In this document: positions 27,636-52,723 of the stretch, one piece after another | How positions within the stretch are numbered: position 1 is the stretch's first letter | How the letters are laid out: each line of letters starts with the position of its first letter | Source of the DNA: Bacillota bacterium | Lineage (GTDB): Bacteria; Bacillota; Clostridia; Oscillospirales; Acutalibacteraceae | Assembly: GCA_022706685.1 (NCBI GenBank) | Contig: JAKJCA010000013.1 | Coordinates: 1-52,723, forward strand | Direction of reading: 5' to 3' | Length of the DNA stretch: 52,723 bases | The notes under the pieces: generated by a model | The model's database searches: none | What the model was told of the DNA's origin: nothing | The model's input: only the letters and a program-made list of their open reading frames with translations | Program-made: the position numbers and the translations under genes

Positions 27636-27926
27636 TTATACCATAAGAACACCCTCAATATCAAAAGAAGGTTTTGCTCCAATGTGTTCAACTTTGTTAT
27701 GATAATGATTGCCTAAATAATAAAAACGCAAACTATCTTTCTCTTTGTCGATAATCTTCTCTAACTTATTCTGCACCTCCCTGCATTTTGCCGAGTCCAT
27801 GACGCATTCAAATACCGAATTCTGTACCCTTCGGCCATAATTGACGCATTGCTTTGCAACTTGGCGCAAACGTCTCTTCCCACCGGCATCTTCGGTATTC
27901 ACATCATAAGTAATCACAACAAGCAT
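27636..27926 (-). CDS. cas2: CRISPR-associated endoribonuclease/adaptation protein Cas2
   Basis: A 96-residue protein of normal Cas2 length. The ferredoxin-like fold begins MLVVITYDVNTED, with the conserved metal-site Asp8 at the end of strand 1. RVQNSVFECVMD follows as strand 2. Cas2 dimers bridge two Cas1 dimers during spacer integration. It starts nine bases after the cas1 stop codon and is the last gene of the cas operon, directly next to the leader. Confidence 0.97.
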   Translation of the reverse strand: MLVVITYDVNTEDAGGKRRLRQVAKQCVNYGRRVQNSVFECVMDSAKCREVQNKLEKIIDKEKDSLRFYYLGNHYHNKVEHIGAKPSFDIEGVLMV

Positions 27927-27935
27927 TATCTCACT

Positions 27936-28967: not shown

Positions 28968-29626
28968 CGCTCCGCCTCGGCTAAATTGACACGGATATAG
29001 TTTGCGGCCGACTTATTTTTGCACAACTTAGGCAAGCAGATATCAGCCATCGAGCAAGCCCTGCAATGCTTTCCTGTTTTGACTTTTGGGGTATACCTCC
29101 TGTTATACACTTCATGCATTTCTGCAAAAGTTTCCACCACCTGCTTTCTAATCTTTTCATCAAAGTTCACTTGTACGCGGTGATTGATTTCGCCATAAAA
29201 CAGGTAACCGAGGGGGATATCGCACAGCAGCATTTCTTCGAGGCAGAGCGCTTGCGCCGTAAGTTGGAGAACATCCTCCTCGGTCTGTTTTGGTTTGCCC
29301 CGTTTGTATTCGACAGGTATAGGTTTGTAAAGGCCTTCCTTGCCGAAAATTCTTACGCCTTTTGGGTCTTTGTGAAGTTCAACGATATCGCATACGCCAT
29401 TAACACCCATCATTTTTGAGAACACCGGCATTCCGCGCGAAACGATAAGGTCGTTTCGTTTTTCTTTGGCATACGAGTCATGGGCTTTTTCGTGAAGGAT
29501 TTCACCTTCGACGGTGCGCAGGTTGTCCGCCCATTGTTGTTCGATATGGATCAAAGCCCATTGACGGCGGCAGAATACAAAATGCTGTATGCCGGAAAGT
29601 TGTAAATAATCTTCTTCCTCATACAT
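28964..29626 (-). CDS. cas4: CRISPR adaptation nuclease Cas4
   Basis: A 220-residue RecB-like nuclease with a 4Fe-4S cluster. It starts MYEEEDYLQLSGIQHFVFCR, giving the first cluster Cys at 19. The remaining cysteines are in KHCRACSMADIC near the C terminus. The nuclease core has a GVCDIV segment, VEYKRG and LQLTAQALCLEE (the Q-x3-x-Y/L helix). It trims prespacers and checks the PAM with Cas1-Cas2. An in-frame TTG at 29650 would extend the protein by eight residues and overlap cas7, but the ATG at 29626 matches the usual family start. No clear ribosome site precedes it, so translation probably reinitiates after cas7. Confidence 0.95.
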   Translation of the reverse strand: MYEEEDYLQLSGIQHFVFCRRQWALIHIEQQWADNLRTVEGEILHEKAHDSYAKEKRNDLIVSRGMPVFSKMMGVNGVCDIVELHKDPKGVRIFGKEGLYKPIPVEYKRGKPKQTEEDVLQLTAQALCLEEMLLCDIPLGYLFYGEINHRVQVNFDEKIRKQVVETFAEMHEVYNRRYTPKVKTGKHCRACSMADICLPKLCKNKSAANYIRVNLAEAER

Positions 29627-29628
29627 CG

Positions 29629-30519
29629 TTAAATCATTCGAAGCAGACAAACCCCTTCGGGTATGGCTTTTTCGTCCACGGTGACTTTATAGTCGCTGTA
29701 TTGACGTGCAGGCGTTCCGGGGTTTTTATTTTCAACTTTTATCGTCTCAAACAGTTTATGCGCCGGGGCGTTGCCAAAGATGCTCTCGTGCTTGAATACC
29801 ATCAATTCACGTACGGCCATTTTTCCCCTTGCGGCCGAATGGTCGTCTTCAAACATATTGATGATCGCATTCCAAAGCAGTGATAAATCATTCTCGTTAA
29901 AACCGGTGCTTTTTTGTGCGAGGTTGGCCGAAACAAAGCCTTCCGCTTTGTATAGAGCGTAGGGCACGATATGCTTGCGTCCCATTTCGGTTTTTTTCTT
30001 TTCGGCATCTGCTTCGGTAGTGATGGCAACCCGGGTAATCGTCACCTCTTGCTGTACAATGGGCTCGATGCTCCTGGCAAAACCGATTTGAACTGGCCCG
30101 CGTACCTGGCCACAGTTCAATGACGCTGATACAAAGGTGGTCATAACCGCGCCGAAGGTACGGATGTCATAGAAATTCTTGCACATAAAGTCACGGATTT
30201 TAGCGTCCAGGGCCGGATCTTTCTTTTTTGCGTCTTTGATATCTTTTTCTTCGATGCCAAAATAGGAAAACGCGGTTTTATCGCTGATGTTTAAAGGAAC
30301 GTTTTCTTTGATATAGATTTTGTAGCCTTCTTCATCGCCTTTGACCGTTTCGACATAATTGCGGATTTTCCGTTTCAGACAAACGTCCGTCACAATGCCG
30401 TAACCCGTTTCGGGGTCGATTCGCGGCATATTCCCGGCATCGGGGTCACCGTTGGGGTTGCCGTTCTCCACATCGAAAAGCACCACGAATTCATAACGAT
30501 TTTTGATAACATCTGACAT
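29629..30519 (-). CDS. cas7: Cascade backbone protein Cas7 (Csd2 type)
   Basis: A 296-residue backbone subunit that coats the crRNA guide. The N terminus MSDVIKNRYEFVVLFDVENG followed by NPNGDPDAGNMPR is the Csd2/Cas7c signature. The glycine-rich GQVRGPVQIGFARS follows mid-protein. The ATG at 30519 has GGAGGG upstream and lies one base after the cas8c stop codon; the frame stays open further upstream into cas8c but without a ribosome site. Several copies should assemble with Cas5c, Cas8c and Cas11c in the I-C effector complex. Confidence 0.97.
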   Translation of the reverse strand: MSDVIKNRYEFVVLFDVENGNPNGDPDAGNMPRIDPETGYGIVTDVCLKRKIRNYVETVKGDEEGYKIYIKENVPLNISDKTAFSYFGIEEKDIKDAKKKDPALDAKIRDFMCKNFYDIRTFGAVMTTFVSASLNCGQVRGPVQIGFARSIEPIVQQEVTITRVAITTEADAEKKKTEMGRKHIVPYALYKAEGFVSANLAQKSTGFNENDLSLLWNAIINMFEDDHSAARGKMAVRELMVFKHESIFGNAPAHKLFETIKVENKNPGTPARQYSDYKVTVDEKAIPEGVCLLRMI

Positions 30520-30520
30520 T

Positions 30521-30889
30521 TTATTGACCCTCCTTGTTTGTTTTTTCATAATTTGCCTGTTTCTGATGATAGTAGCCAAGTATAAAGACACCTTGTTCGT
30601 CCAGTGTCAAATGGGCGGGAAATGGTTTTTCATCCACGTCAAGTTTGTCCATCAGGTCTCTGATTTTGTTGTCAATTGACTTTCCGAAGTCCGACTTTGA
30701 GATATGGTGGTTGCTCAGTCGTAGAAGGACCGGAAACACGGAGGCGGGCGTAGCACAGGCGGATGTAAAATATCTGTCTTTTATGGTGGTGTTGATGCCC
30801 GGATTGGCATCCTGTTGGGCTTTTTCCAAAACGGAAAACAAGCGGCCCAAAACATAGGCGCGGTTTTCACTCTGTGCATTTAAGGACAC
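30521..30889 (-). CDS. cas11c: Cas11c small subunit from an internal start in cas8c
   Basis: Inside the 3-prime part of cas8c and in the same frame, a perfect AAGGAGG (30898-30904) lies eight bases before a GTG codon at 30889-30887. Starting there gives a 122-residue protein beginning (V/M)SLNAQSENRAYVLGRLF and ending at the cas8c stop codon. Type I-C systems are known to make Cas11 from an internal start in cas8c at about this length, so this is a strong match in position, size and signal. The small subunit stabilises the R-loop in the effector complex. No protein evidence is available here. Confidence 0.82.
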   Translation of the reverse strand: MSLNAQSENRAYVLGRLFSVLEKAQQDANPGINTTIKDRYFTSACATPASVFPVLLRLSNHHISKSDFGKSIDNKIRDLMDKLDVDEKPFPAHLTLDEQGVFILGYYHQKQANYEKTNKEGQ

Positions 30890-32296
30890 AGTCAATACCT
30901 CCTTATCCTTTGTGTTATTCCCTGAATATTTTTTGGTCAGATACGCCTTGATAATACCGGCCTTTGCGCTGTTAATCGCTTTCTCAGCCCGAATTCGGAC
31001 AATGACGCTGCCGTACAATGCGGCAGGGTAGGGGCTACCGGTCAAAATGGAACGGAGCACAGAACCGGATAACAAGGGGGATGAAGCCTTGTCTTTTGAT
31101 TTTGGTGAAACGGTTTCCTGCATCATTTGCCAAAGAGGCAGATATGGCTGCTCGGTAGGAGCCCTATTAATCTCCATATCCTTATAATGCCTTGCGATTC
31201 TTTCAATAAAGTTGCCAAAGGTATCTTGAATAAAGAATCGAACGGCAAGACGGGCCGCGTTCGGAGAAAGCCCTAAAATATAAAATGCTGTGCTTGGGTT
31301 AAACGCATCGTTGAGTTCGGCAACAGGCATGCCCGACGCTATTTTGTTAAAAACGTTGCCGATTAGAGAAGCGGCGCCTTTATCATCCGTTTTTTCGGTA
31401 GAATTCGTATCCGGGTTTAATGCGTAAGCAAATAAATCCCGATAGATAGATTTTGCGCTCTGCGCCCAAAAAACAACCGTTGTATCGCCCAAAGTTTGAC
31501 GGTGTTTGCTGTCGGCCAAAAGATAATTCAGCGTTGTCGTATAGGCGAAGGCGGCATATTCGCTCACCGGCGCGTTGAGGCCTTGTTGATCGTCGCGGCC
31601 GTGTGATTCGTAGGCGTTAGCGTTGAATGAAACCAGCGATGCACCCATCGATTGCGCGCCTTTCACGCCTTTAACGCTTGGGTGCAGGCGGGCGATGGGC
31701 AACCGTTCCCCTGTGACAAGGCACTGCATAACAACGGCATCCCTGCTTTGCTGATAATACTTTTCCCAGGCCTTCTTGATGGCGCCATTTTCATGGATAT
31801 AACCGGAGCCTTCTAACATGAATACCAGATTTGCCCCGCTTGTCAGCGCATCGAGATATTCGGCTAAAACCGGGTTTTTCTGACCCTGTTGGGGATCCCA
31901 CTGCTCTAAAAAAGCCAAAACCGCCCGTGCCTCGTCGCAATCCGCGCCCATCAGAACTTCTCTGTGTAATTCCTTGAAAGCCTCAAAGCATTCTCTCGAC
32001 CGTTCCGGTTTGCCTTTGTTGTCAATCCCGAGCATATAGCCTGAGTTCTCGCAAAGAAAGTTTGATGTTATTCCGACTGTTTTTTTTACTTGCTCTGGAA
32101 CTTCGAACGATTGAGGGATTTCCACCATCTTGTTGCCGCGCTGAACTGGATTTTTCAACGGAATAATACCTGCGAGTTTGCCCCCGGCGGTTATACTGAC
32201 CGCATAAGACACATTGGCTTTGCAATATCCGGGTTTTGAAATACCATTGGCTTTTGCAAGTATTTCATAATACTCGACTAAGGATTGAAGGATCAT
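30521..32296 (-). CDS. cas8c: Cascade large subunit Cas8c (Csd1)
   Basis: A 591-residue subtype-specific large subunit, responsible for PAM recognition and DNA unwinding in type I-C. The N terminus MILQSLVEYYEILAKANG is typical of Csd1. Mid-protein GANLVFMLEGSGYIHENGAI and FNANAYESHGRDDQQGLNAP are recognisable family segments, and the C-terminal helical region (YVLGRLFSVLEKAQQDANPG) equals Cas11c. The ATG overlaps the cas5c stop codon (ATGA). The gene also carries an internal ribosome site for Cas11c at 30898-30904. AT content is higher than in flanking chromosomal genes, as for the whole cas operon. Confidence 0.97.
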   Translation of the reverse strand: MILQSLVEYYEILAKANGISKPGYCKANVSYAVSITAGGKLAGIIPLKNPVQRGNKMVEIPQSFEVPEQVKKTVGITSNFLCENSGYMLGIDNKGKPERSRECFEAFKELHREVLMGADCDEARAVLAFLEQWDPQQGQKNPVLAEYLDALTSGANLVFMLEGSGYIHENGAIKKAWEKYYQQSRDAVVMQCLVTGERLPIARLHPSVKGVKGAQSMGASLVSFNANAYESHGRDDQQGLNAPVSEYAAFAYTTTLNYLLADSKHRQTLGDTTVVFWAQSAKSIYRDLFAYALNPDTNSTEKTDDKGAASLIGNVFNKIASGMPVAELNDAFNPSTAFYILGLSPNAARLAVRFFIQDTFGNFIERIARHYKDMEINRAPTEQPYLPLWQMMQETVSPKSKDKASSPLLSGSVLRSILTGSPYPAALYGSVIVRIRAEKAINSAKAGIIKAYLTKKYSGNNTKDKEVLTVSLNAQSENRAYVLGRLFSVLEKAQQDANPGINTTIKDRYFTSACATPASVFPVLLRLSNHHISKSDFGKSIDNKIRDLMDKLDVDEKPFPAHLTLDEQGVFILGYYHQKQANYEKTNKEGQ

Positions 32297-32949
32297 TGAA
32301 TCACCTCGCTTTCGGTTAAATCAATTACGCCATCACGCATCACAGCCCTGAAAAACATCGGTCGAATGTCGCCCAAATCGGAATAATTCATATCAAAGAG
32401 CATGTAGCCCAAATCTTTTTCGCCTGTATATGCGGTTTTAACGTTTTCTTCTTCGTAAAGCTCGAAATTCACCGGAAACTCCCGGCAGCCAAACGAAGGG
32501 CAATGGTAGCACTGGCCTTTTCGAAGTCTTCTCAACGCAATATTGTAATGCTTTTCAACACTGTCGTTTTCACCTGCTTCGTTGGTCAGTTCAAAATGCG
32601 CCTCGATGACGTATTGCACATTTTTCAAAACAAGCGAAGCCCTTTGTTGCCTGTCTTTCGAGGTATCGAGAAACAACGGCTCTTTCGAACCGTTCATGAC
32701 GGATTTTACATTGCTGGCAAGGAGTTTGGTTTTGACTTCGTTGCGCCGGAAATTGGTAAATTCAATGGGGTTGCAAACATAGATTTTATCGATGAACCAT
32801 TGAATTGACGGCTTCCAGTAAATTGCTTCGACGATACCTCTTGCGGCTGAAGGGGTGATGACGTCATAACTGACCCTTTCCACCTTCATCTCGGGCCGGG
32901 TAAAAAGCGCATAATCTCCCCATACTCTCAATTTGATACCGTATGCCAA
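32293..32949 (-). CDS. cas5c: Cas5c, crRNA-processing subunit
   Basis: A 218-residue Cas5 of subtype I-C, which replaces Cas6 and cuts the repeat hairpin of the pre-crRNA. The family segment TPSAARGIVEAIYWKP carries Tyr44, and VEKHYNIALRR carries Lys133-His134. These correspond to the Tyr-Lys-His catalytic set described for Cas5d (Y46/K116/H117 in B. halodurans). The start is TTG at 32949 with a strong AAGGAGGTGAT six bases upstream. It lies 16 bases after cas3. No cas6 is present, in line with subtype I-C. Confidence 0.97.
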   Translation of the reverse strand: MAYGIKLRVWGDYALFTRPEMKVERVSYDVITPSAARGIVEAIYWKPSIQWFIDKIYVCNPIEFTNFRRNEVKTKLLASNVKSVMNGSKEPLFLDTSKDRQQRASLVLKNVQYVIEAHFELTNEAGENDSVEKHYNIALRRLRKGQCYHCPSFGCREFPVNFELYEEENVKTAYTGEKDLGYMLFDMNYSDLGDIRPMFFRAVMRDGVIDLTESEVIQ

Positions 32950-32965
32950 AATATCACCTCCTTTA

Positions 32966-35137
32966 TTAAAAGAATAAACCCAATCCGCCTTTCGCGGGCA
33001 AGGTAAAACCGGTGTATTCGTGATAATAATCGCCGTCTTTTAACACGGCGATTTCCGTGTCGACCGGTTCAACGCAGCCTGTGCCGAGAAGTGCTTCATA
33101 TTCATCGGGATATACATTCACCGTATATTGCTGTATGTCTCGAAACAGCTTTTGATTCTTTTCCCCGCTTCTTAATTTCCTAATAAGATCGTCTGCTTCC
33201 TTGTCATAGGGAATAACAATGGGGCGGCTAGCCTGATCAATCAATTTGAATTCATCAGCGACAGACGCAAACGGAAAGCTGTAATCGCAGTCAACGGCAT
33301 CTTCGAATCTCTTCACGATTTCTTTTGCATCCAATCCTTGTCCGGTCATTTGATAAAGTTGCTCGAAATAGGAACGAATGGCCTCAGGCGCGGCAATATC
33401 TTGATATTGCCGTGATATGGACCTGGCGATTTCAATCGGCCTTTTCATCGCGGCAGGTTGATATTTTATGTATTTATCGGCCGGCTCAAATATGCTAACA
33501 ATACTATGTTCCATGCTCCGTTTTCCTTCGCGGTTACATCGCCCGGCTGCCTGTATCTGCGAATCCAAACCTGCGGTTGCACGGTATACCGTTGGAAAAT
33601 CCACATCGACGCCGGCCTCTATGAGGCTTGTGGAAACAACGCGGCACGGCAGAATGTGTTTTGACGTCAACCGCTCTTTTATTGCCTGTAGAACTATTTT
33701 TCGATGTTTCGGGCACATGAAAGTTGACAAATGATAACGCCCTTCCGGTTCAAGTTGAGAAAAAAGTTCTTGGGCGTGGCGTTTTGTATTGACGATACAT
33801 AGGCATTGTCCTTCGTTGTTTAAACGCTCAGCCAAAGCGTTGTCCTCTATTTTGCCTATATTGATGATTGTTGCCCGTTGAAAAAAACGATACGTTTCGA
33901 CTGTGTTGTTGTGAATCTCAATCGGTGTCAGCACTTTCGGAAATAGTTTGCTCAACGCCGGCTGTGTGGCGCTGCATAAAACCGCAGTACAACCGTAGTT
34001 ATGAACCAGCTCGGAAATGGCCCGAATGCAAGGCAGCAGATACTCCGTCGGGAACATTTGCGCCTCATCAAAGATAATGACGCTATTGGCGATATTATGC
34101 AGTTTCCTGCATTTTGAGGTTTTATTGGCGAAAAGAGATTCGAAAAACTGTACATTTGTTGTGACGACAACGGGCATATCCCAGTTTTCTGTTGCTAAAC
34201 GATACCGGGTCATCGTTTCATCATTATCGTTATAGTTAAAGTTGGAGTGATGCTCCAAAACATATTCTTCACCGAGTATCTGCTTAAAAACAGATGCGTT
34301 CTGTTCAATAATCGATGTATAAGGAATCACATAAATGACTCTTTTCATATCGTGCGTTTTCGCATGCCTTAAAGCAAAAGCCAGAGATGAAACTGTTTTG
34401 CCACCGCCTGTCGGTACGGTCAATGTAAACAATCCCTTCGGCAGTTTTGCTCTTTCAAGGCAACTTTGCAGAATTTCGTTCCGTTTTTCGTGCAAGGCGT
34501 TCTTCGGTTCATTAAACCGCCCGATATATGCTAACATTTTTTTATACAGATCTTCGATTGAATAAACAATAGTTCCACGCGCTCTTCCGCTTGTCATAAA
34601 CGCTTCGGTATCTAAAAAGTCAGCATCTACCAAACAAGAAAATAACATCCGGATGAAAAAGGAGTATGAGAACCCATATTTTTCCAAGGGTTGAATCGGC
34701 TGGCTGATTGGCGGTGTGAAAGTAGCGATGTCAAAATCGCGTTTGAATCCGGAATAATCAGGCAAATCTTTTCGTTTCAGACGGCCGTTCAGCGTAGTCT
34801 CAATACCGACATCCGCTTTGCTGCCGCCATCGGGCAAACCCGAATGATGCCCGGCAATACAATAAGAAAAAAGAAGGCCAATTTTGGGCAAAGCATTAAA
34901 GCTTTCCAAAGCGCCGGCTGTAGAATGATCCACCATATTGTTTGCGCCCCGGATGCGATTTTGAAACTCCCGCGAATACTTGCCGATGTCATGAAGCATG
35001 CCGCAAAAATAACCGTATCCTCCGCACCCAAAATTTTCCGCAAAAATACGCGTTTGTTCTGCGGTGTTAAGGCAATGCTGTAAAATTGTTTGGATTGCCC
35101 CGTCATCACGGATATGCGCAGCAGTGATCGAGTCCAA
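32966..35137 (-). CDS. cas3: CRISPR helicase-nuclease Cas3 (HD + DEAD)
   Basis: A 723-residue effector that unwinds and degrades target DNA recruited by Cascade. The N-terminal HD nuclease has His21 and MLHDIGKYSREFQ (His49, Asp50), then DHSTAG (His71) and GHHSG (His97-His98). The superfamily 2 helicase follows with Walker A TVPTGGGKT (about 240-248), IIFDEAQMFP (DEAQ 357-360) and CSATQ. Both catalytic parts are intact. The start is TTG at 35137 with AGGGG seven bases upstream; no ATG fits better. It is the first gene of the cas operon, with a possible promoter at 35155-35182. Confidence 0.97.
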   Translation of the reverse strand: MDSITAAHIRDDGAIQTILQHCLNTAEQTRIFAENFGCGGYGYFCGMLHDIGKYSREFQNRIRGANNMVDHSTAGALESFNALPKIGLLFSYCIAGHHSGLPDGGSKADVGIETTLNGRLKRKDLPDYSGFKRDFDIATFTPPISQPIQPLEKYGFSYSFFIRMLFSCLVDADFLDTEAFMTSGRARGTIVYSIEDLYKKMLAYIGRFNEPKNALHEKRNEILQSCLERAKLPKGLFTLTVPTGGGKTVSSLAFALRHAKTHDMKRVIYVIPYTSIIEQNASVFKQILGEEYVLEHHSNFNYNDNDETMTRYRLATENWDMPVVVTTNVQFFESLFANKTSKCRKLHNIANSVIIFDEAQMFPTEYLLPCIRAISELVHNYGCTAVLCSATQPALSKLFPKVLTPIEIHNNTVETYRFFQRATIINIGKIEDNALAERLNNEGQCLCIVNTKRHAQELFSQLEPEGRYHLSTFMCPKHRKIVLQAIKERLTSKHILPCRVVSTSLIEAGVDVDFPTVYRATAGLDSQIQAAGRCNREGKRSMEHSIVSIFEPADKYIKYQPAAMKRPIEIARSISRQYQDIAAPEAIRSYFEQLYQMTGQGLDAKEIVKRFEDAVDCDYSFPFASVADEFKLIDQASRPIVIPYDKEADDLIRKLRSGEKNQKLFRDIQQYTVNVYPDEYEALLGTGCVEPVDTEIAVLKDGDYYHEYTGFTLPAKGGLGLFF

Positions 35138-42426: not shown

Positions 42427-43788
42427 ATGGAAAAGAACACGCGGGCGGTCCCTTTCGGCGGACGGACGGAAATGTTTGTCGACGATTATCTCGCCGAGCG
42501 GCTCGAAAACGCCCGGTTTGAAATCAACCGGCCCGAGCGCAAGGAAGAGGTCCTCCGCTTCGAAAAAAAATGGGAAGGCCGCGGCTCTCTCGCCTGTTCC
42601 GTTTTCCGGCACGAAGGGCAGGTGTATCTGTATTACCGCGGATATCCGGACGGGGCGGACGACGCGAGCGAAATGCAGACGGCCTGCCTTGCGTTGAGCG
42701 GCGACGGGAAGAAGTTCCGCCGCGCGGCCGTCGACCGGATCCCTTACGGCGCAATCAGGCGCAACAACATCGTGTGGATGGGTCCCGAGGCGCATAATTT
42801 CCTGCCGTTTTACGACGACAACCCGGCCTGCCCGCAAGACGAACGCTTCAAGGCGGTCGCCGGCACGCTGGCGCTCGGCGGCCTGTTCGCTTTCTGCTCC
42901 GCTGACGGCGTCCGCTGGCGGAAAATGAGCGAAAAACCCGTCATCACCCGGGGGGCGTTCGATTCGCTGAACACCGCCTTTTACGACGCACGGGCGGGGC
43001 TGTACCGCTGCTATTCGCGTTACTGGCTGCAGGGCGGTTTTTCCGGCCTGCGGGCGATCCAGTCGTGCGTGTCGGAGAATTTCCTCGACTGGAGCGACCC
43101 GGCGCCCAACCGCTACGGCGGCGGCGACAACACCGAGCATTACTATACCAACGCCGCCGCGCCGGTGCCCGGAGCGGAGCATGTGCTGGCGATGTTCCCG
43201 ATGCGCTTCGTTCCCGACAGAAAAAAGGTGGAAAGCCACCCGTCCAAAGGCGTGTCCGACGCGGTCTTTCTGACCAGCCGCGACGGCGTGAACTGGAGCG
43301 ACCCGTTCAAGACGGCATGGATACCGCCCTCGCTCGACGAGCGGACCTGGACGCAGCGCAACTTCATCACCGCCTCCGGCATCGTCGAAACCGGCAACAG
43401 TTTCAGCCTCTATGTCGAGGAGCGTTATATGTGGGACGACTGCGCCGTCGTCCGCTACGAGGTGCCGGCGTTCCGCTTCGGCTGCGTCAGCGCGGACGCG
43501 CGCGGCGGGTTTCTGCTGACCGGGCCGCTGGTCCCCGAGGCGGCGGGGCTGACGGTCAACTACGCCACGTCCGCCGCGGGAGCCCTCAGCGCGGCGGCGA
43601 CAAACCCGGAGGGGGAGCCCCTCGACGGCTTCGGCTTTGAGGATTGCGGCGAACTGTACGGCAACGAAATTGAAAAAGAAATCCGCTGGGGCGGCAAGTC
43701 CCTTGACGCGCTGCGCGGCAGGGTAATCCGCCTGCGCTTCATGCTGCGCGACGCGCGCCTCTACGCCGCGGGCTCAACCGGCGGTTAA
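42427..43788 (+). CDS. Five-bladed beta-propeller glycosidase-like protein
   Basis: A 453-residue cytoplasmic protein resembling the GH32/43/62-type five-bladed propellers. Visible family features are the N-terminal EMFVDDYLAERLENARFEIN, CSVFRHEGQVYLYYRGY (blade start), CSADGVRWRKMSEKPVI, DSLNTAFYDARAGLYRCYSR and LTSRDGVNWSDPF. Similar proteins, often annotated as hypothetical glycosyl hydrolases, are frequent in polysaccharide-degrading bacteria. The substrate is unassigned, and I cannot name the catalytic acid and base. There is no signal peptide. The ATG follows AGGAGG. It is divergent from GH78 and lies behind the hairpin region at 42184-42371, so its expression may be leader-controlled. 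Confidence 0.8.
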   Translation: MEKNTRAVPFGGRTEMFVDDYLAERLENARFEINRPERKEEVLRFEKKWEGRGSLACSVFRHEGQVYLYYRGYPDGADDASEMQTACLALSGDGKKFRRAAVDRIPYGAIRRNNIVWMGPEAHNFLPFYDDNPACPQDERFKAVAGTLALGGLFAFCSADGVRWRKMSEKPVITRGAFDSLNTAFYDARAGLYRCYSRYWLQGGFSGLRAIQSCVSENFLDWSDPAPNRYGGGDNTEHYYTNAAAPVPGAEHVLAMFPMRFVPDRKKVESHPSKGVSDAVFLTSRDGVNWSDPFKTAWIPPSLDERTWTQRNFITASGIVETGNSFSLYVEERYMWDDCAVVRYEVPAFRFGCVSADARGGFLLTGPLVPEAAGLTVNYATSAAGALSAAATNPEGEPLDGFGFEDCGELYGNEIEKEIRWGGKSLDALRGRVIRLRFMLRDARLYAAGSTGG

Positions 43789-44695: not shown

Positions 44696-46744
44696 GTGCC
44701 GGAAATTACCTGTTCCCGCGACGGGCTGAGCGTTTCGCTCGGCGGGCTGGAACTGTTCTCCCACAGCCCGTCGAGGCCGCTGATAGAACTGGGCACGGCC
44801 CGCTGCGATTTCCGCACGCACAAACGGAATATCGCCTCTTACAAAATCCGTATATCGAAAAAAAGAATGCGGCCGTTGAAAAACATCACCGGTTTTACCC
44901 GCGGGCCCGGTTCGGCGACGGTTTGCTTTGACAATCTTCTCGCCTTGAACATCACCGAGGACCGGGGCCTGCTGTGCGTGGAGATCGACGCGCCGGAGCA
45001 GATACGGCGCGGCTGCCTGTTCCGGCTGAATATCCCCGCGCGCAAAGGCGAAGCGGTTTACGGCATGGGCGAGCAGTTCAGTTACCTCAACCTTAAAGGC
45101 AGAAAGGTGCCCGTTTGGACGCAGGAACCCGGTTTCGCCAAAAACCGCTCCCTTTACCGGCTGGCCGGCGACCTGGTGATGGGGGCGGGCGGCGAATGGT
45201 GGACCAACTATTATCCCCAGCCGCTGATGGTGAGCTCCCGCCGCTGTTTTCTGGGCATCGACACTTATGCGTATTGCGAATTTGACTTCGGCCGGGACCC
45301 GTACCGCCTTTTATGCTGCGAAGTGCCGCGCCGGATCGTTTTCGGCCGGGCAGACAGGATGGAGGACCTTTTCCCGCTGATAGCCGAATACTGCGGCCGC
45401 CAGCGCAGGCTGCCGGAATGGGTTTACAGCGGCGTCCACCTCGGTATCGGAGGCGGAATGGACGCGGTGAAGGGGAAGCTGAAGTCGGCGCTTGACGGCG
45501 GCGTGCAGGTCAGCGGCGTCTGGGTCGAAGACTGGACGGGGCTGAAACACTTCGATTACCAGACAAGGCTGCTGTGGAACTGGGATTACCACCGGGAAAT
45601 GTATCCGGATTTGCCGGACTATATCCGGGAACTGCACGGGCAGGATATCCGCTTTCTGGGCTACAACAACTGTTTCCTGATGAAAGGCACCCCGATGTTC
45701 GAGCACTGCAAAGAAATGGGGTATCTGGTCAAAAACAAAGACGGCAAACCCTATCCGCTGACCATGTTTTCGTTTCAAGCGTATATGCTCGACCTGACCC
45801 ATCCCGGCTGCCGGGAATGGATCGGCTCCGTCATTAGGGATAATATGATCGGCATCGGCCTGGACGGCTGGATGTGCGATTTTGCGGAGTACCTGCCCGC
45901 GGACTGCGCGCTGCATGACGGAAGCGACCCCCGCCTCTGCCACAACGAGTATCCGGTGCGGTGGGCGCAGGTCAACGCCGACGCCGTCAAAGACGCCGGC
46001 CGGGAAAGGCCGGAGAACGCCGTCGTCTTTTTCAACCGTTCCGGCCATCTCGGCACCGCCGCGCAAAGCCCGCTGATATGGACGGGGGACCAGGTGATGA
46101 CCTTCTGGAAAAACAGCGGACTGCCCGCGAGCATCTGCGGCAGCGTTTCCCTGGGCTTTTGCGGCATCGGCCACGTGCACAGCGATATCGGCGGCGAATT
46201 CGGCATGCTCTGGTTCAAGCGGACCAAAGAACTGTTCATGCGCTGGACCGAATACGCCGCTTTTACCCCCGTGATGCGGGGGCATGAGGACAAGGGCAAC
46301 AGCGGCTGGACGTATGACAGCGACGGGGAAACGCTGGCCCACTTTGCGAAGTTCAGCCGTATTCACGGGGCGCTGGGGGAATATTTCCGTCTCTGCGAGG
46401 ACGAATACCAGACGAAAGGCCTGCCTTTCATGCGCCATTTATCCGTGCATTACGAAAACGAGAAGCGGACGCATACGAAACGGCAGTCTTACCTGCAATA
46501 CGAATATCTGCTCGGCAGGGATATCCTGGTCGCGCCGGTTTATCGAAAAGGCGCGCGGAGCAGAAAAGTCTTTCTTCCGGATGACCGCTGGATACACCTT
46601 TGGAGCGGCGCGGAATATACAAAGGGAAGTTTTCGGATTGACGCGCCGCTGGGGGAAATTCCGGTTTTTATCAGGAAAACCTCACCGGCGCTGGAATACC
46701 TGCCGCGGGCGATATCCCGGCCGCCGCGGCGCGAATCGGCTTGA
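44696..46744 (+). CDS. GH31 glycosidase of the sulfoquinovosidase (YihQ) clade with altered pocket
   Basis: A 682-residue GH31 retaining alpha-glycosidase. The beta domain has VYGMGEQFSYLNLKGRKVPV, a pattern characteristic of YihQ. The nucleophile is Asp395 in WMCDFAEYLP and the acid/base is Asp465 in IWTGDQ; HSDIGG follows. Compared from memory with the YihQ sulfonate-binding set Q-Q-R-W-Y (262/288/301/304/508), this protein has Gly252, Glu278, Arg291, Trp294 and Glu501, so only Arg and Trp are kept. It should therefore cleave an alpha-glycoside, but probably not plain sulfoquinovosides. There is no signal peptide, so it is cytoplasmic. The start is GTG at 44696 with GGGAGGTG upstream. It heads an operon continuing with an acetyltransferase 14 bases later. 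Confidence 0.88.
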   Translation: MPEITCSRDGLSVSLGGLELFSHSPSRPLIELGTARCDFRTHKRNIASYKIRISKKRMRPLKNITGFTRGPGSATVCFDNLLALNITEDRGLLCVEIDAPEQIRRGCLFRLNIPARKGEAVYGMGEQFSYLNLKGRKVPVWTQEPGFAKNRSLYRLAGDLVMGAGGEWWTNYYPQPLMVSSRRCFLGIDTYAYCEFDFGRDPYRLLCCEVPRRIVFGRADRMEDLFPLIAEYCGRQRRLPEWVYSGVHLGIGGGMDAVKGKLKSALDGGVQVSGVWVEDWTGLKHFDYQTRLLWNWDYHREMYPDLPDYIRELHGQDIRFLGYNNCFLMKGTPMFEHCKEMGYLVKNKDGKPYPLTMFSFQAYMLDLTHPGCREWIGSVIRDNMIGIGLDGWMCDFAEYLPADCALHDGSDPRLCHNEYPVRWAQVNADAVKDAGRERPENAVVFFNRSGHLGTAAQSPLIWTGDQVMTFWKNSGLPASICGSVSLGFCGIGHVHSDIGGEFGMLWFKRTKELFMRWTEYAAFTPVMRGHEDKGNSGWTYDSDGETLAHFAKFSRIHGALGEYFRLCEDEYQTKGLPFMRHLSVHYENEKRTHTKRQSYLQYEYLLGRDILVAPVYRKGARSRKVFLPDDRWIHLWSGAEYTKGSFRIDAPLGEIPVFIRKTSPALEYLPRAISRPPRRESA

Positions 46745-46758
46745 ACGGAGGCAGCAGG

Positions 46759-47757
46759 ATGTCGGATATCAAAACGCCGGCCGCCGGCGAACGGGTCAGG
46801 TCCATCGACGCCTTTCGCGGCATCACGATGGTGATGATGATTTTCGCCAACCACGCCGGCGGCGATTTCTACCCCTATTTCTCGCACGCGCGCACCATAC
46901 CGGGCTTCACGGCGGTCGACCTCATCGAACCGATGTTCTTTTTCGCCATCGCGCTGTCGTTCATGCTTTCCTTCAAGAGCAAGGAGGCGAAAAACGGCAC
47001 CAAAGACGCCGTCTGGGCCGTCATCGGCAGGTACCTGGCGCTCATCGGCCTCGGCTTTTTGATCAGCTGGAACGTCGGCGAAGGCGTTCGGTTCGGCACC
47101 GCCCTGGCCTGGGGCACCCTGCAGGGCATCGGCCTGGCCGGCTTGATTTCCCTGCCCTTCGTCAAGGCGAACCGCTTTGTCAAAATCGGCGGCGGGCTGG
47201 CGATTACGGCGGCGTTCTACCTGGTTTTTTGGCGCGGCGAACGCACCGCGGTCGATTTCTGGGGCGAAAAGTTCGTGCCGGCAGCCCTGGCCGGCATCTT
47301 CCCCGCGAACGACAACATGGTCGGCGCCATCGCGAAAGGCGGCTATCTGCTGCTCGCCATCGGCGTCATCGAGTGTATGCGAAAGAGCAGGAAGGAGTTT
47401 TTGCTCGTATCGTCGGGCATCACGGCGCTGGCCGCGGCGACGCTGTTGTTCCCCGGCCGGATGCCCATCGGTCCGTCGGTCATGACCCCGAGCTATGTTC
47501 TGGTTTCCCTGGCGCTTTGCATCTGGCTGTACGTCATCGCCGAGTGGCTGTTTGACAGAAAAAAACTGCCCTGCGCGCCTTTCCTCTGGTGGGGCAGAAA
47601 CTCCATGCTGATGTACGTGCTCAGTTCGGCCGGCGGCATGGAACTGACCTTCGGCAGCCGCGTGTCCGTCCGCTTCCTGTCCATTCTGCTGTACGTGCTG
47701 GCGATGACGGCAATCCTGTACTTTTTCGACAGGAAAAAATGGTATTTGAGGCTGTAG
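46759..47757 (+). CDS. HGSNAT-like transmembrane acetyltransferase (DUF5009 type)
   Basis: A 332-residue membrane protein with about 9-10 helices. The N terminus RVRSIDAFRGITMVMMIFAN continues HAGGDFYPYFSHA, then FTAVDLIEPMFFFAIALSF. This closely follows heparan-alpha-glucosaminide N-acetyltransferase, in which a membrane-facing His (in F-x-H-A) accepts acetyl from acetyl-CoA on the cytosolic side and passes it to a terminal glucosamine across the membrane. The equivalent residue here is His43. The C-terminal WWGRNSMLMYVLS and FDRKKWYLRL also fit. It is related to DUF5009/YeiB-like acyltransferases, so the acceptor is uncertain. The ATG follows GGAGGCAGCAGG. It sits between GH31 and a GPH carrier and upstream of GH84, in one operon. 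Confidence 0.85.
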   Translation: MSDIKTPAAGERVRSIDAFRGITMVMMIFANHAGGDFYPYFSHARTIPGFTAVDLIEPMFFFAIALSFMLSFKSKEAKNGTKDAVWAVIGRYLALIGLGFLISWNVGEGVRFGTALAWGTLQGIGLAGLISLPFVKANRFVKIGGGLAITAAFYLVFWRGERTAVDFWGEKFVPAALAGIFPANDNMVGAIAKGGYLLLAIGVIECMRKSRKEFLLVSSGITALAAATLLFPGRMPIGPSVMTPSYVLVSLALCIWLYVIAEWLFDRKKLPCAPFLWWGRNSMLMYVLSSAGGMELTFGSRVSVRFLSILLYVLAMTAILYFFDRKKWYLRL

Positions 47758-47804
47758 CCCTCGTTCACACAATCCGCTGAAAGGGGGACGGGAACATCCA
47801 GACC

Positions 47805-49352
47805 TTGTTCAAGAAAAAAGAGAAAAAAGAGCGGGCGGAGACGATGCTGACGCGCAGCGATATGCGCTTCTACATCGGCGGCACTTCCGCCGGGACGGTG
47901 GCCGGGGGCTTTTACGGCAAATTCACGCAGCTGTACCGCTACCGTATCGGGATTACGCCCTGGAAACTGGGTATCGTGGGGACCGTCAGCAATATCTGGG
48001 ACGCGGTCAACGACCCGATTATCGGCGCGTGGCTCGACCACCGCAAACCCGGCAAAAACGGCAAGTATGCCCCGATGGTCCGGTATATGGCCATACCGGT
48101 CGCGCTGGTCAGCATTGCCGGGATGCTGGTGCCGACGGGCCTGGGCGAGTTTTCCAAACTGGCGTGGGTGTTATTCTGGTCGATTTTCGGCGACTTGTTC
48201 GGCACGCTCTTCTCCGCAAGCAACAACGCCATCCTCGCGCGCGTTTCGCCGCTGTCGAACGACCGGACCAAAATCGTGTTCTGGAACCAGATTTTCAACG
48301 AGGCGGCCGGCCTGATTCCGCAGGGCATCTTCCTGCTCGCGGACGAAAAAAATATGCAAAGGGTTCAAAAAGCGACGGGCATCCGGTACACCTTCGAGAG
48401 CCTTGTCATCACCCTGACGCTTGTCATCGGGATACTGATTCATCCCTTTGTCGGCCTCGGCGGCTTTGTCAAAGAAAAGGTCGTGGTCGACGAGCCGGAG
48501 ATTTCCTTCATGCGGGAACTGACGCTTGTTCTCAAGAACAGGACGATGATGCTGTCGGTCATCGCCGCGCTGGCCGCCAACCTCACCGTGAAAATGGATG
48601 AATACTACTTCTTTCAATATATGGATGTCGGCTTCCACTGGTTCGGCAAAAACATCGACGGCCTCAACGCCCTGGCGATTTTCGGCATCCTGACCAGCAT
48701 CCCGGCGGCCATCGGGCTGCCCTTCACCAACAAGGTCATCAAGCGGTTCGGCCAGAAAAACGTGATCCAGTTCCTCCAATACTCCACCATCATATCCAAC
48801 ACCCTGGCGTTCTTAGTCGGCTACAAAGGGCAGCGCTTCTTTTTCTCGATGATTATTCTGGCGCTGTCGACCTTCTGCAGGTCCTGGCACGGACCCGCGT
48901 TCCAGACGATGATCCTCGACTCGATTGACGAAATCGAGTATAAAACCGGCAGCCGCAATGAGGCGTCCACCTTTGCCGTGCGGGGCGTTCTGCTCAAACT
49001 GGTCGGCGGCCTGGGCGCTTTGACCAACGGCGTTTCGCTCAGTTTGCTCCAGTTTGACCCCGAACCGGTCAACGGCAAGGTGATCATCACCGAAACCTTC
49101 AGGAAGCGCGCCTGGCCGTTTTATATGCTCGGGCCGGCGGTCGGCGCCCTGTGGCAGCTGATTACCTATTCTTTCATCGACTTCACCGGGGAAAAGAAGG
49201 CGCGCATTCAGGCCGAACTCAGGGAACGCCGCGCCCTGCAGGCCGCCCAGCGCGCGGAAGACGCCGACAGGAAAAACGAAGCAAGAGACGCGGACGCGGC
49301 GGCAAGCCCGCAGGCCGGCGATACGGACCCGAATTCAGACGGAAGGGAATGA
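47805..49352 (+). CDS. GPH-family sugar:cation symporter (MFS)
   Basis: A 515-residue transporter. The loop signature is present as IWDAVNDPIIGAWLDHRKPG, later followed by a MVRY in place of the usual RPY. The second-half IEYKTGSRNEAS corresponds to the YxEYKTGxRxEG motif with changes. The C-terminal roughly 50 residues are Ala/Asp/Arg-rich and charged, longer than in other carriers here. The start chosen is TTG at 47805 behind AAGGGGGACGGG; ATG at 47844 (GGAGACG upstream) is an alternative that removes only a Lys-rich tail. It lies 47 bases after the acetyltransferase and overlaps or abuts the GH84 start. The cargo is presumably the glycan handled by GH31/GH84. Confidence 0.87.
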   Translation: MFKKKEKKERAETMLTRSDMRFYIGGTSAGTVAGGFYGKFTQLYRYRIGITPWKLGIVGTVSNIWDAVNDPIIGAWLDHRKPGKNGKYAPMVRYMAIPVALVSIAGMLVPTGLGEFSKLAWVLFWSIFGDLFGTLFSASNNAILARVSPLSNDRTKIVFWNQIFNEAAGLIPQGIFLLADEKNMQRVQKATGIRYTFESLVITLTLVIGILIHPFVGLGGFVKEKVVVDEPEISFMRELTLVLKNRTMMLSVIAALAANLTVKMDEYYFFQYMDVGFHWFGKNIDGLNALAIFGILTSIPAAIGLPFTNKVIKRFGQKNVIQFLQYSTIISNTLAFLVGYKGQRFFFSMIILALSTFCRSWHGPAFQTMILDSIDEIEYKTGSRNEASTFAVRGVLLKLVGGLGALTNGVSLSLLQFDPEPVNGKVIITETFRKRAWPFYMLGPAVGALWQLITYSFIDFTGEKKARIQAELRERRALQAAQRAEDADRKNEARDADAAASPQAGDTDPNSDGRE

Positions 49353-49357
49353 GAAAT

Positions 49358-51031
49358 ATGATTTATCCGAAACCGCAGCAATACGGCCGGAATGACCTGT
49401 TCGGCGTTTCCGGCACCCCGAGGGCGGCGCTCGAGGGCGAGGCCGGCGGCTTGGAGGCGCTCGCCGCTTACGCCGGGCTGGACAATCTTGCCCCGGACGG
49501 GAATATCGTAATCCGCGTCAAACTGGAAAACGGCAGAGACACGTCATATATCGAAGAAACGCAGACGGTCACCGACGAGAAGTATCTGCTGCGTATCGAG
49601 CAAACCGAAAACGGCGCGGACATCCGGCTGACGTCGGCGGGCCGGCGCGGCGTTTTTTACGGGCTTTGCACCGTCGCCCGGATGATTGCGGACAACGAAT
49701 TTATCCGGGGAGAAACCACGGATTACCCGCTGTTCAAAACGCGCGGCTATATCGAAGGGTTTTACGGGAAGCCCTGGCGCTTCGACCAGCGCTGCGATAT
49801 GCTCAAACTGATGGCGAAAAACAAAATGAACACCGTCTACTACGCCCCGAAAGACGACGAATTCCACCGGGAACGCTGGCGCGACCTTTACCCGGAGAAC
49901 GAAATATCCGGCCTTACCGAACTGTTCCGCATATCGCGGGAAGCGCAGATGGATTTTTATTACTGCATCGCGCCGGGCCTTTCGATGAAATATTCCGACG
50001 ACGGCGAATTCGAAGCGCTGATGAACAAGACCAAACAGCTTTTCTCGCTGGGGATCCGCTGCTTCGGCCTGCTGCTGGACGATATCCCGGAAAAACTGAA
50101 GTTTCCGGAGGATGCCGAACGATACGGCGAGGTCGTCAACGCGCATATCGACCTTTGCGGGCGCTATTATTACGCCTTGAAGCAGCTCGACAGCGCAACC
50201 CGCCTGACGGTCTGCCCGATGCAGTACTTCGGCAAAGGCAACGAATATTTCATTTCAAAATTCGGCCGCGGCCTGCCGGCGGAGGTTTCGATTTTCTGGA
50301 CAGGGCGCGACGTCTGCTCGCGCGAACTGACGGTGCCGGAGGCGTTCACCTTCATTTCAAGCACGTATCACCGCCCGCTGTACTGGGACAATTATCCGGT
50401 CAACGACGGCGATATGTTCAACCGGATGCACCTCGGCCCGATTATCGGGCGCGACGCCGAGCTGTACCGTTATGCCGAAGGCCTCATCTCCAACTGCATG
50501 GAGTATGCGGAATGCTCCAAAATACCCCTGCTCACCGTCGCGGACTATCTGTGGAACCCGAAGGCATACGACGCGGACGAATCCTATCAAAACGCCATCG
50601 AGACGGTCATCGGCAAAGAGCACGCCCAAGCGTTCGCTTGCTTTGCGGACCACCTGCGGACGTCCTGTCTGCTGGACAGCAACTCCCCGATGCTGCACCG
50701 GCTTTTTTCCCAAGCCGAAAACGCGTTTGAAGCGGGCGACCTGGGCGCCGCGCTGGAATGCGTCGGCGCTTATATGGAAAAGATGAACGCCTGCAACGCC
50801 TTTTTGCAAAGCGGCGCGCTGCCGATTCTGGACGAGTTGAAAAAATGGTCCGGGAAATACGCGCTTTTCTGCGACATCATCAACGGCGTGTTTGAACTGA
50901 TTACCTCTTACGACGACGAAGCGCGCGACCATGTTTTCGAACTGGTCCGCCGGTACAACGCGGACCCGGCCGTGCTGACGACGTTTCATCTGGAAGACCT
51001 CATCAGGTCGGTCATGAATATCGAAATATAG
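49358..51031 (+). CDS. GH84 N-acetylhexosaminidase-type enzyme
   Basis: A 557-residue enzyme of glycoside hydrolase family 84, which removes beta-N-acetylglucosamine (and related sugars) using the substrate acetamido group as nucleophile. The barrel begins with the family signature KTRGYIEGFYGKPWRFDQR. NTVYYAPKDDEFHRERW follows. The catalytic Asp pair is Asp241-Asp242 in GLLLDDIPEKL, as in the NagJ-type DD motif. IFWTGRDVCSREL and YWDNYPVNDGDM form further subsite residues. An N-terminal GH20b-like beta domain precedes the barrel. There is no signal peptide or carbohydrate-binding module, unlike secreted GH84 toxins, so it is cytoplasmic. ATG 49358 is preferred; ATG 49349, overlapping the previous stop codon, is possible. 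Confidence 0.93.
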   Translation: MIYPKPQQYGRNDLFGVSGTPRAALEGEAGGLEALAAYAGLDNLAPDGNIVIRVKLENGRDTSYIEETQTVTDEKYLLRIEQTENGADIRLTSAGRRGVFYGLCTVARMIADNEFIRGETTDYPLFKTRGYIEGFYGKPWRFDQRCDMLKLMAKNKMNTVYYAPKDDEFHRERWRDLYPENEISGLTELFRISREAQMDFYYCIAPGLSMKYSDDGEFEALMNKTKQLFSLGIRCFGLLLDDIPEKLKFPEDAERYGEVVNAHIDLCGRYYYALKQLDSATRLTVCPMQYFGKGNEYFISKFGRGLPAEVSIFWTGRDVCSRELTVPEAFTFISSTYHRPLYWDNYPVNDGDMFNRMHLGPIIGRDAELYRYAEGLISNCMEYAECSKIPLLTVADYLWNPKAYDADESYQNAIETVIGKEHAQAFACFADHLRTSCLLDSNSPMLHRLFSQAENAFEAGDLGAALECVGAYMEKMNACNAFLQSGALPILDELKKWSGKYALFCDIINGVFELITSYDDEARDHVFELVRRYNADPAVLTTFHLEDLIRSVMNIEI

Positions 51032-51044
51032 AATCGGGTGCGCC

Positions 51045-52622
51045 ATGGGAAAAATCCGCAACGGCATTCAAAAATTCAAATACAACTGGCGCAGGCCTTC
51101 GACGGGCGACAACCTGTCTTACCGGGAAATCGCCGGATTTTCGGCGAGCGCGGCGGGTCAGGATATTTTCTGGGGCCTCCGCGGCCAGGTGAAAACCATC
51201 GTCATCGCCGTTTTCGGCATTGACCCGGTCCGCTTCGGCAAACTGGGCCTTTTCTCCGGCCTGTGGGACGCCGTCAACGACCCGATCATGGGGATTCTCA
51301 TCGACCGCACGGACACCAAATGGGGCAAACTGCGGCCCTACATGCTCATCACCGCTTTCCCGATCGCCCTGCTGACCATGCTGTCGTTTTTCAACATCCC
51401 CCTCGGGCCGGACGGCAAATTCGCGTTTGTCGCGGTGGTCTATATCCTGTGGGAAATGGCCTATACCATATCGGACGTACCGTTCGGCGCGCTGTCGTCC
51501 GTCATGACGTCGGACACCGTGCAGCGTACAAAACTCGTCACCGTTTCCCGTTACGGCAGCGAGGCGGCGATGGCGCTGCCCGGCATCATTTCGTTCGTCG
51601 TTTCCATCGTCGGCATCAAATATATGGGCCCCATTTTCTTTGCGGGCGCAATCGTGCTGTCGGCGCTGGGCGGGGTTCTGTTTTCCACCTCGTTTTTCAC
51701 CATCAAGGAAAGAGTGCCGCCGGCGCCCAACAAACAGTCGCTGAAGGAAATCTGGGGCGTGCTGAAAAACAGCCGTCCGATGCTGGTGCTGGTCGTCTCC
51801 GAACTGATGGGCGTCATCAACGCGGTGTCGGGCTACACCTCCTGGTACTATTTCCTCTTCGCGTTCAAAAAAGGCATCGGCTGGCGGATACTCAAACCCT
51901 TCAGCAGCGAGGCCGAGGGCGTCGCGCTGCAGAACTTCATGGCCATCATCCGGGGCGCGCCGACCTTTATCGCCATGGCTTTCACCCCGAAAATCGTCAA
52001 ACGTTTCGGACTCAAGGGCCTTGTGGTCATCGCGGGGCTTGCCAAGGCGTTCGCGTATTTTACCATCTACCTGCTGGGTTTCGACAGCACCCCGAAGCTC
52101 ATCTACATGATTTTTATCCTGACCGTCACGGGGATTCCCGACAACATGATGATGATTGTCAGGCGCACCCTCTCTTCGGACGCCCTCGATTATGTCGAAT
52201 ATAAAACAGGAGAGCGTTCGGAGGGCCTGCTGGGCTCCCTGATGGGTTTCGCGGTCAAACTCAAAGACGCCGTCGTGGTATTTCTGGGCGGTTACGCGCT
52301 GGCCTGGGTCGGCCTCGGGGGCGTGGAAGGCGTCGAAAGGACCATCGAGGACTTCCTTAAAATGTCGCCCGACACGCACAAACTGTTTATGCTGTTCGCC
52401 CTTTTCCCCGCCATCGGCGCCCTGATGCAGGTACTGCCTTATCTCTTTTACGATTTCACGGGCGAAAAGAAGCAGAGGATTTTGGAAGAACTGGAAAAAA
52501 GCAGAAAAGTCCGGCATGACGATCTTATCGAAAAAGGGTATGTGTTCGACAAAGATATTTCGGTCAAAGGCCTGCTGAACAAGCAAGACGCGGAAAACGA
52601 TTCGCAGCAGGGCGACCGGTGA
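51045..52622 (+). CDS. GPH-family sugar:cation symporter (MFS)
   Basis: A 525-residue transporter with about 12 helices. The loop signature is complete: LWDAVNDPIMGILIDRTDTK followed by WGKLRPYMLI. The second-half motif YVEYKTGERSEG is also complete. A charged cytoplasmic tail follows FYDFTGEKKQRILEELEKSR. It begins 13 bases after GH84 and ends 11 bases before the next gene, so it belongs to the GH31-acetyltransferase operon. Two GPH carriers in one operon suggest two related substrates, or import of substrate and handling of a product (inference). It is the fourth GPH carrier in this window. Confidence 0.92.
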   Translation: MGKIRNGIQKFKYNWRRPSTGDNLSYREIAGFSASAAGQDIFWGLRGQVKTIVIAVFGIDPVRFGKLGLFSGLWDAVNDPIMGILIDRTDTKWGKLRPYMLITAFPIALLTMLSFFNIPLGPDGKFAFVAVVYILWEMAYTISDVPFGALSSVMTSDTVQRTKLVTVSRYGSEAAMALPGIISFVVSIVGIKYMGPIFFAGAIVLSALGGVLFSTSFFTIKERVPPAPNKQSLKEIWGVLKNSRPMLVLVVSELMGVINAVSGYTSWYYFLFAFKKGIGWRILKPFSSEAEGVALQNFMAIIRGAPTFIAMAFTPKIVKRFGLKGLVVIAGLAKAFAYFTIYLLGFDSTPKLIYMIFILTVTGIPDNMMMIVRRTLSSDALDYVEYKTGERSEGLLGSLMGFAVKLKDAVVVFLGGYALAWVGLGGVEGVERTIEDFLKMSPDTHKLFMLFALFPAIGALMQVLPYLFYDFTGEKKQRILEELEKSRKVRHDDLIEKGYVFDKDISVKGLLNKQDAENDSQQGDR

Positions 52623-52633
52623 GGTGAACGGCG

Positions 52634-52723
52634 ATGAAAAAGGCGCATATTTTGAAATGGACCTGTTTGACGCTGATTTTTGCGGCGGTGTTTACCGTCC
52701 CCGCGGGCGCGTGGAACGCCGGG
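52634..52723 (+). CDS. Secreted or membrane-anchored protein, 5-prime fragment (cut by window edge)
   Basis: Thirty codons are visible, starting MKKAHILKWTCLTLIFAAVF and continuing TVPAGAWNAG. This is a typical signal peptide: Lys-rich start, hydrophobic core and a possible A-x-A-like cleavage at PAGAW. Cleavage may instead fail and leave an anchor. GAGGTG lies before the ATG, 11 bases after the GPH carrier, so this is the next gene in the same operon. The mature protein lies outside the window and cannot be identified. Confidence 0.75.
   Translation, partial: MKKAHILKWTCLTLIFAAVFTVPAGAWNAG

What the first reader, a model, noticed from the sequence alone, without database searches (positions are those of the whole stretch)
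44696..52723. Operon joining an HGSNAT-like acetyltransferase with GH84, an unusual GH31 and two symporters
Within 8 kb on one strand, with gaps of 5 to 47 bases, are a GH31 glycosidase, a transmembrane acetyltransferase with the His43 F-S-H-A motif of human lysosomal heparan glucosaminide acetyltransferase, a GH84 N-acetylhexosaminidase, two GPH carriers and a secreted protein. In lysosomes the acetyltransferase caps terminal glucosamine so that an N-acetylglucosaminidase can remove it. A bacterial acetylate-then-cleave module for non-acetylated amino sugars (de-N-acetylated host or cell-wall glycans) would be a new arrangement. GH84 needs the acetamido group for catalysis, so the chemistry is consistent. 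Linkage differs from heparan (GH84 acts on beta), so the acceptor must be another glycan.
Basis: partly seen in the sequence, partly recalled or inferred. Interest (0 to 1): 0.72.

Follow-up and report, generated by a model that had tools for sequence, protein, structure and literature searches.

The report
Sugar-acetylating enzyme in glycosidase operon
A bacterium carries, in one tight row of genes, a relative of the human lysosomal enzyme that acetylates glucosamine, a glycosidase of a family that depends on that acetyl group, and two predicted sugar importers, so the cell likely caps amino sugars outside before importing and cutting them; similar bacterial acetylating enzymes are already known, but this exact pairing turned up in none of the other loci examined.

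Summary
The gene order is confirmed: GH31, an HGSNAT-type transmembrane acetyltransferase (AcT), a GPH-type carrier, GH84 and a second carrier on the + strand, gaps 5-47 bases. A signal-peptide-like start follows and is cut by the contig end. AcT passes Pfam HGSNAT_cat, models on human HGSNAT (TM 0.74) and keeps its catalytic Asn, His and Asp. GH84 keeps its Asp-Asp pair. The GH31 passes the YihQ (sulfoquinovosidase) family cut-off, but has Glu at YihQ's sulfonate-site Tyr, so I do not call it a sulfoquinovosidase.

AcT-GH84 linkage did not recur: 0 of 14 other AcT genes in the family sample, 0 of 80 GTDB loci, 0 of 21 other GH84 neighbourhoods fetched. Genome-level co-occurrence is strong: 10 of 13 AcT genomes have GH84 against 35 of 385 others, and it holds among glycan generalists (10 of 11 against 24 of 113). 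Four of 15 AcT genes in the family, all of a distant subgroup, adjoin a YdjC-type protein. Acetylating glucosamine outside, then importing it, was already proposed for bacterial NagX in 2022. The operon reads as a new variant of that theme; the acceptor is unknown.

The parts
44696..46744 (+). GH31 glycosidase of the YihQ family, catalytic D395 and D465, Glu501 at the YihQ Tyr508 position
   Evidence: PRK10426 641.9 bits, cut-off 553; PDB relatives; residues in 122-row alignment
46759..47757 (+). AcT, HGSNAT-type transmembrane acetyltransferase, N31, H43, D54 at HGSNAT N286, H297, D307
   Evidence: PF07786 34.5 bits; HGSNAT alignments; model and fold match; start and numbering
47805..49352 (+). 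GPH1, MFS_2-type sugar carrier; TTG start as listed
   Evidence: PF13347 127.1 bits
49358..51031 (+). GH84 beta-N-acetylhexosaminidase family protein, no hydrophobic N-terminus, LLLDDIP catalytic Asp pair
   Evidence: PF07555 319.1 bits; alignment to NagJ; hydropathy
51045..52622 (+). GPH2, second MFS_2-type sugar carrier
   Evidence: PF13347 169 bits
52634..52723 (+). first 30 codons of a protein with a hydrophobic N-terminus, cut by the contig end

Best explanation
This row of genes likely forms an acetylate-outside, import, cut-inside module for an amino-sugar glycoside, in which the HGSNAT-type membrane enzyme is predicted to move the acetyl group of cytosolic acetyl-CoA onto a free sugar amine at the outer face, a GPH-type carrier would import the N-acetylated product, and the cytosolic GH84 would release N-acetylhexosamine. 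Shown: gene order, families, catalytic residues, fold match, and genome-level co-occurrence of AcT with GH84. Inferred: one transcript, enzyme orientation, the acceptor (a beta-linked glucosamine-type residue), and the order of steps. Released GlcNAc could enter the ordinary route through NagA, which the genome has. The GH31 would remove an alpha-linked neighbour sugar; its Glu501 argues against sulfoquinovose and might suit a hydroxyl or an amine at C6, which is speculation.
For: AcT: PF07786 (3), HGSNAT alignments with N286, H297 and D307 kept, model pTM 0.80 with human HGSNAT as PDB ranks 1-15. The roles of those residues and of the luminal acceptor site come from passages of PMC11199644. 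GH84: PF07555 (3) and Asp-Asp aligned to NagJ (17). Co-occurrence: 10 of 13 AcT genomes against 35 of 385 others have GH84; 10 of 11 against 24 of 113 within GH20+GH78 genomes. YdjC-type protein beside 4 of 15 AcT genes in the family. NagA (59), a second GH84 and a second AcT-like gene (9) in the same genome.
Against: No other AcT-GH84 linkage found: 0 of 14 other AcT genes in the family sample (21, 23; four contigs under 9 kb), 0 of 80 GTDB loci, 0 of 21 GH84 neighbourhoods. AcT genomes are also rich in GH20 and GH78, and only a genus count corrects for relatedness. HGSNAT Arg372 is Leu (47, 64). The fold match has rmsd near 6 A, and the model is weak around H43 (block 41-50 pLDDT 58; 49, 56). 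YdjC was near none of the 80 GTDB loci, and its four AcT neighbours are distant, with Gln for Asn286. The acceptor is untested.
Confidence: 0.38

Rival explanations
1. AcT is a NagX-like salvage enzyme: it acetylates free glucosamine outside, GlcNAc is imported and handled by NagA, and GH84 sits in the same amino-sugar operon without needing AcT's product.
For: NagX is involved in glucosamine use in five bacteria and is proposed to work this way (PMC9007349, section read); NagA is in the genome; same Pfam family.
Against: It does not explain why GH84 in particular co-occurs so strongly. AcT is only 23-26% identical to the three DUF5009/HGSNAT-type rows P0022-P0024, and no proven NagX was compared directly.
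Confidence: 0.3
2. AcT acetylates some other acceptor (its own cell-surface polymer or a non-glucosamine sugar), and its place between glycosidase genes is incidental or serves a different glycan.
For: The pairing is not conserved; relatives lie in varied neighbourhoods; the acceptor-site Arg372 is lost.
Against: Gaps of 14 and 47 bases on one strand; co-occurrence with GH84; carriers near several relatives.
Confidence: 0.2
3. The operon handles a sulfoquinovose or similar 6-modified alpha-glycoside through the YihQ-type GH31, with AcT and GH84 as accessories.
For: GH31 exceeds the YihQ equivalog cut-off; its best PDB matches are sulfoquinovosidases; the Arg301 and Trp304 positions are kept.
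Against: The Tyr508 position is Glu here and in all 13 rows at 51% identity or more, the window included. None of the 19 window proteins scanned against Pfam was named as sulfoglycolytic, a weak test. DUF4867 was not found in the genome, but nothing rang in the controls either.
Confidence: 0.07

Closest known systems
NagX, bacterial HGSNAT-like putative glucosamine acetyltransferase (Price et al. 2022, PMC9007349)
   Same: PF07786 domain, catalytic His, short single-domain membrane protein, proposed use of cytosolic acetyl-CoA on an outside amino sugar, NagA downstream
   Different: Here it sits with GH84, a YihQ-type GH31 and two GPH-type carriers; the Arg372 position is Leu; close relatives form a narrow clade (11 full-length proteins at 74-89%)
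Human lysosomal HGSNAT (PDB 8VKJ, 8JKV)
   Same: Fold (TM 0.74 on the query), N286, H297 and D307
   Different: No luminal domain, Arg372 replaced, and predicted cleavage in another compartment by a beta- rather than alpha-acting glycosidase
GH84 (NagJ, BT_4395)
   Same: Domain and Asp-Asp pair
   Different: No hydrophobic N-terminus here; placed beside an acetyltransferase
GH31 sulfoquinovosidases (YihQ, E. rectale SftG)
   Same: Family, both catalytic Asp, Arg301 and Trp304 positions
   Different: Glu at the Tyr508 position, shared by a coherent subclade (22 of 122 rows)

Membership tests
HGSNAT/NagX (PF07786) | Pfam HGSNAT_cat above its cut-off | tested here: met
   34.5 bits, cut-off 22
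HGSNAT/NagX (PF07786) | Catalytic Asn286, His297, Asp307 | tested here: met
   N31, H43, D54
HGSNAT/NagX (PF07786) | TmAT fold | tested here: met
   Model pTM 0.80, HGSNAT TMq 0.71-0.75, rmsd 5.7-7.5
HGSNAT | Arg372 that binds glucosamine 6'-OH | tested here: not met
   Leu116; Arg in 22 of 116 rows of bacterial relatives, window included
HGSNAT | Glu499 that binds glucosamine 3'-OH | tested here: inconclusive
   Asp by the profile alignment, Met by MAFFT
HGSNAT/NagX | Acetylates glucosamine | not testable with these tools
   needs an assay
GH84 | PF07555 and the catalytic Asp-Asp pair | tested here: met
   319.1 bits; LLLDDIP aligned to the NagJ pair
GH31 sulfoquinovosidase (YihQ) | NCBIfam PRK10426 cut-off and two catalytic Asp | tested here: met
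   641.9 bits, cut-off 553; D395, D465
GH31 sulfoquinovosidase (YihQ) | Arg301 and Trp304 of the sulfonate site (roles recalled) | tested here: met
   R291, W294
GH31 sulfoquinovosidase (YihQ) | Tyr508 of the sulfonate site (role recalled) | tested here: not met
   E501; Glu in 22 of 122 rows

The most novel reading that the evidence does not exclude
A bacterial counterpart of the Sanfilippo-C lysosomal step: a transmembrane acetyltransferase restores the acetyl group on a de-N-acetylated beta-linked glycan fragment at the cell surface, so that after import a dedicated cytosolic GH84 can use that very group as its catalytic nucleophile, with a GH31 of altered (Tyr to Glu) specificity for the neighbouring sugar.
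Probability: 0.22. Interest if true: 0.72.

Novelty: new variant of a known kind. Interest (0 to 1): 0.42.

Why it matters
If true, some bacteria reach partly deacetylated glycans (chitosan-like, or de-N-acetylated host or cell-wall material) by re-acetylating them first, and AcT together with GH84 would be a genome marker for that niche. It would also give HGSNAT, whose loss causes Sanfilippo syndrome type C, compact bacterial relatives with a testable partner glycosidase.

Tried and rejected
Close AcT relatives (11 full-length proteins at 74-89%) are listed from jgi, lgn and ena sources, none from ncbi. A GTDB scan with the single sequence confirmed no relative (records of or near this genome may be left out), and a viral-contig scan confirmed none. 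The three same-genus genomes had no AcT match and no close GH31. Contig-length matching was tried as indirect synteny: P0003 (AcT) and P0029 (GH31) both list a longest contig of 5108, hinting that the GH31-AcT pair recurs; I saw no length shared between the AcT list and the 120 listed GH84 relatives of 1756. This is weak either way.

The AcT paralog on contig C65 lies beside a PL8 lyase, but tail to tail, so it is not taken as an operon. Sulfoglycolysis was considered and set low (Glu501; the DUF4867 test is uninformative). Promoter- and terminator-like sites were at shuffle level (5 against 3.2, 12 against 13.4).

Dropped or partial: 3 loci with ORFs outside 250-600 aa (L067, L087, L105), P0001 (self) and P0015 (fragment); at least five of its rows are genes fetched twice (L024/L043, L025/L046, L026/L059, L027/L047, L028/L050), which also makes the family and GTDB sets overlap. 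One search used the 120 listed of 464 hits, plus the window and its paralog. One search saw the 80 loci kept of 128 confirmed. GH84 neighbourhoods were fetched for 21 of the 55 other matches listed. Thresholds differ: AcT and GH20 E 1e-3, GH84 E 1e-50, GH78 E 1e-30.

Full report
What is there. On the + strand of a contig that ends at 52723, five complete genes follow each other: GH31 (44696-46744), AcT (46759-47757), GPH1 (47805-49352), GH84 (49358-51031) and GPH2 (51045-52622), then 30 codons of a protein with a hydrophobic start. Gaps are 14, 47, 5, 13 and 11 bases. GH31 and GH84 have no strongly hydrophobic N-terminus. Promoter- and terminator-like sites are at shuffle level. The source genome has 2.78 Mb in 113 contigs.

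The acetyltransferase. AcT matches human HGSNAT by phmmer and, as an 18-row profile, at E 2e-46. Its model (mean pLDDT 76.9, pTM 0.80) has HGSNAT chains as PDB ranks 1-15, TM 0.71-0.75 on the query, rmsd 5.7-7.5. Passages of PMC11199644 report that mutation of N286, H297 or D307 reduces activity, and that R372 and E499 bind glucosamine 6'-OH and 3'-OH. In the alignment the first three are N31, H43 and D54, R372 is Leu116, and E499 is ambiguous. Passages of PMC11357348 agree on the Asn and His in other numbering. In 116 aligned rows His and Asp stand in 115 with one gap each, Asn in 89, Arg372 in 22. So the chemistry is kept and the acceptor site has drifted, as in many bacterial relatives.

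Precedent. PMC9007349 (NagX section read) reports from mutant fitness that NagX is involved in glucosamine use in five bacteria, and proposes acetylation of periplasmic glucosamine from cytoplasmic acetyl-CoA, then uptake and NagA. PMC12423673 (passages) says that no DUF5009 protein had been confirmed experimentally. Full-text searches of the held library for GH84 with HGSNAT, and for four of GH84, HGSNAT, NagX, acetylation and bacteria, found no paper.

Recurrence. In 398 genomes of the family, AcT-like genes occur in 13 genomes, 15 genes, some only distantly similar. The neighbourhoods of the other 14 hold no GH84; four of those contigs are under 9 kb. Nor do 80 GTDB loci, which hold no GH31 match either but a GPH-type match in 6. 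The 20 GH84 neighbourhoods and that of the genome's own second GH84 hold no AcT. So the physical pair is so far seen only in this window. At genome level, GH84 is in 45 of the same 398: 10 of 13 AcT genomes against 35 of 385 others (Fisher 2.9e-8; 2.0e-7 without this genome), and by genus 9 of 10 against 8 of 125 (7e-9; in two of those genera the AcT genome itself lacks GH84). Controls: GH20 in 12 of 13 against 192 of 385 (p 0.002) and GH78 in 12 of 13 against 159 of 385 (p 0.0003), so AcT genomes are glycan generalists. Among the 124 genomes with both, GH84 is in 10 of 11 with AcT and 24 of 113 without (7e-6; 2.4e-5 without this genome). Relatedness was handled only by the genus count.

Deacetylase neighbours. 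In four AcT loci (G070, G188, G102, G386; two genera) a YdjC-type protein lies directly upstream on the same strand: by Pfam in L031 and L033, by 83% and 71% similarity in L032 and L034. YdjC/ChbG proteins are carbohydrate deacetylases (recalled). In G070 the row continues with a GH30 and a GPH-type carrier. This supports amino-sugar acceptors for that subgroup, though these AcT have Gln at the Asn286 position, and the same query found no YdjC in the 80 GTDB loci or the window. The window's genome has three YdjC genes elsewhere, NagA, a second GH84 (53%) and a second AcT (31%) tail to tail with a PL8 lyase.

The GH31. It passes the YihQ equivalog cut-off and its best PDB relatives are sulfoquinovosidases (6PNR is E. 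rectale SftG in passages of PMC11968277). Both catalytic Asp and the Arg301 and Trp304 positions are kept, but the Tyr508 position is E501. Glu is found in 22 of 122 rows, and in all 13 rows at 51% identity or more. A Glu should disfavour a sulfonate (inference; the residue roles are recalled, since the structure paper is not held). The function of this subclade is open.

Mechanism and judgement. The best reading is outside acetylation, import, then cytosolic cleavage. Shown are genes, residues, fold and co-occurrence; transcript, orientation, acceptor and order are inferred. The lysosome analogy is apt for the chemistry, but the compartments differ and a bacterial precedent exists. The novelty lies in the pairing with GH84 and the altered GH31, seen together once.

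Noticed in passing
window 24385-35137: A CRISPR array of about 46 repeats (ATTTCAATCCACGCTCCCCACGCGGGGAGCGAC type, about 67-base spacing) beside Cas1, Cas4, Cas7, Csd1 and a Cas3-like helicase, the make-up of a type I-C system; one spacer appears twice (before the repeats at 24657 and 24791).
   Followed up: partly
L031 4991-10925; L032 1378-3551; L033 8011-10334; L034 about 9039-11098: HGSNAT-like genes directly downstream of YdjC-type genes in two genera, an acetyltransferase next to a likely deacetylase; in L031 a GH30 and a GPH-type carrier follow.
   Followed up: partly
window 44696-46744 and P0028-P0041: A subclade of YihQ-type GH31 proteins with Glu in place of the sulfonate-site Tyr, including proteins named from Lokiarchaeota and Sigynarchaeota MAGs (P0041, P0043); function unknown.
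   Followed up: partly
L029 924-4610 (G000 contig C65): A PL8 polysaccharide lyase tail to tail with a second HGSNAT-like gene in the same genome.
   Followed up: no
window 9512-11413 and 42427-43788: A DUF4838 protein with a GH67/GH20b-like N-terminal match, and a 453-aa ORF upstream of the operon with no Pfam or NCBIfam match.
   Followed up: no
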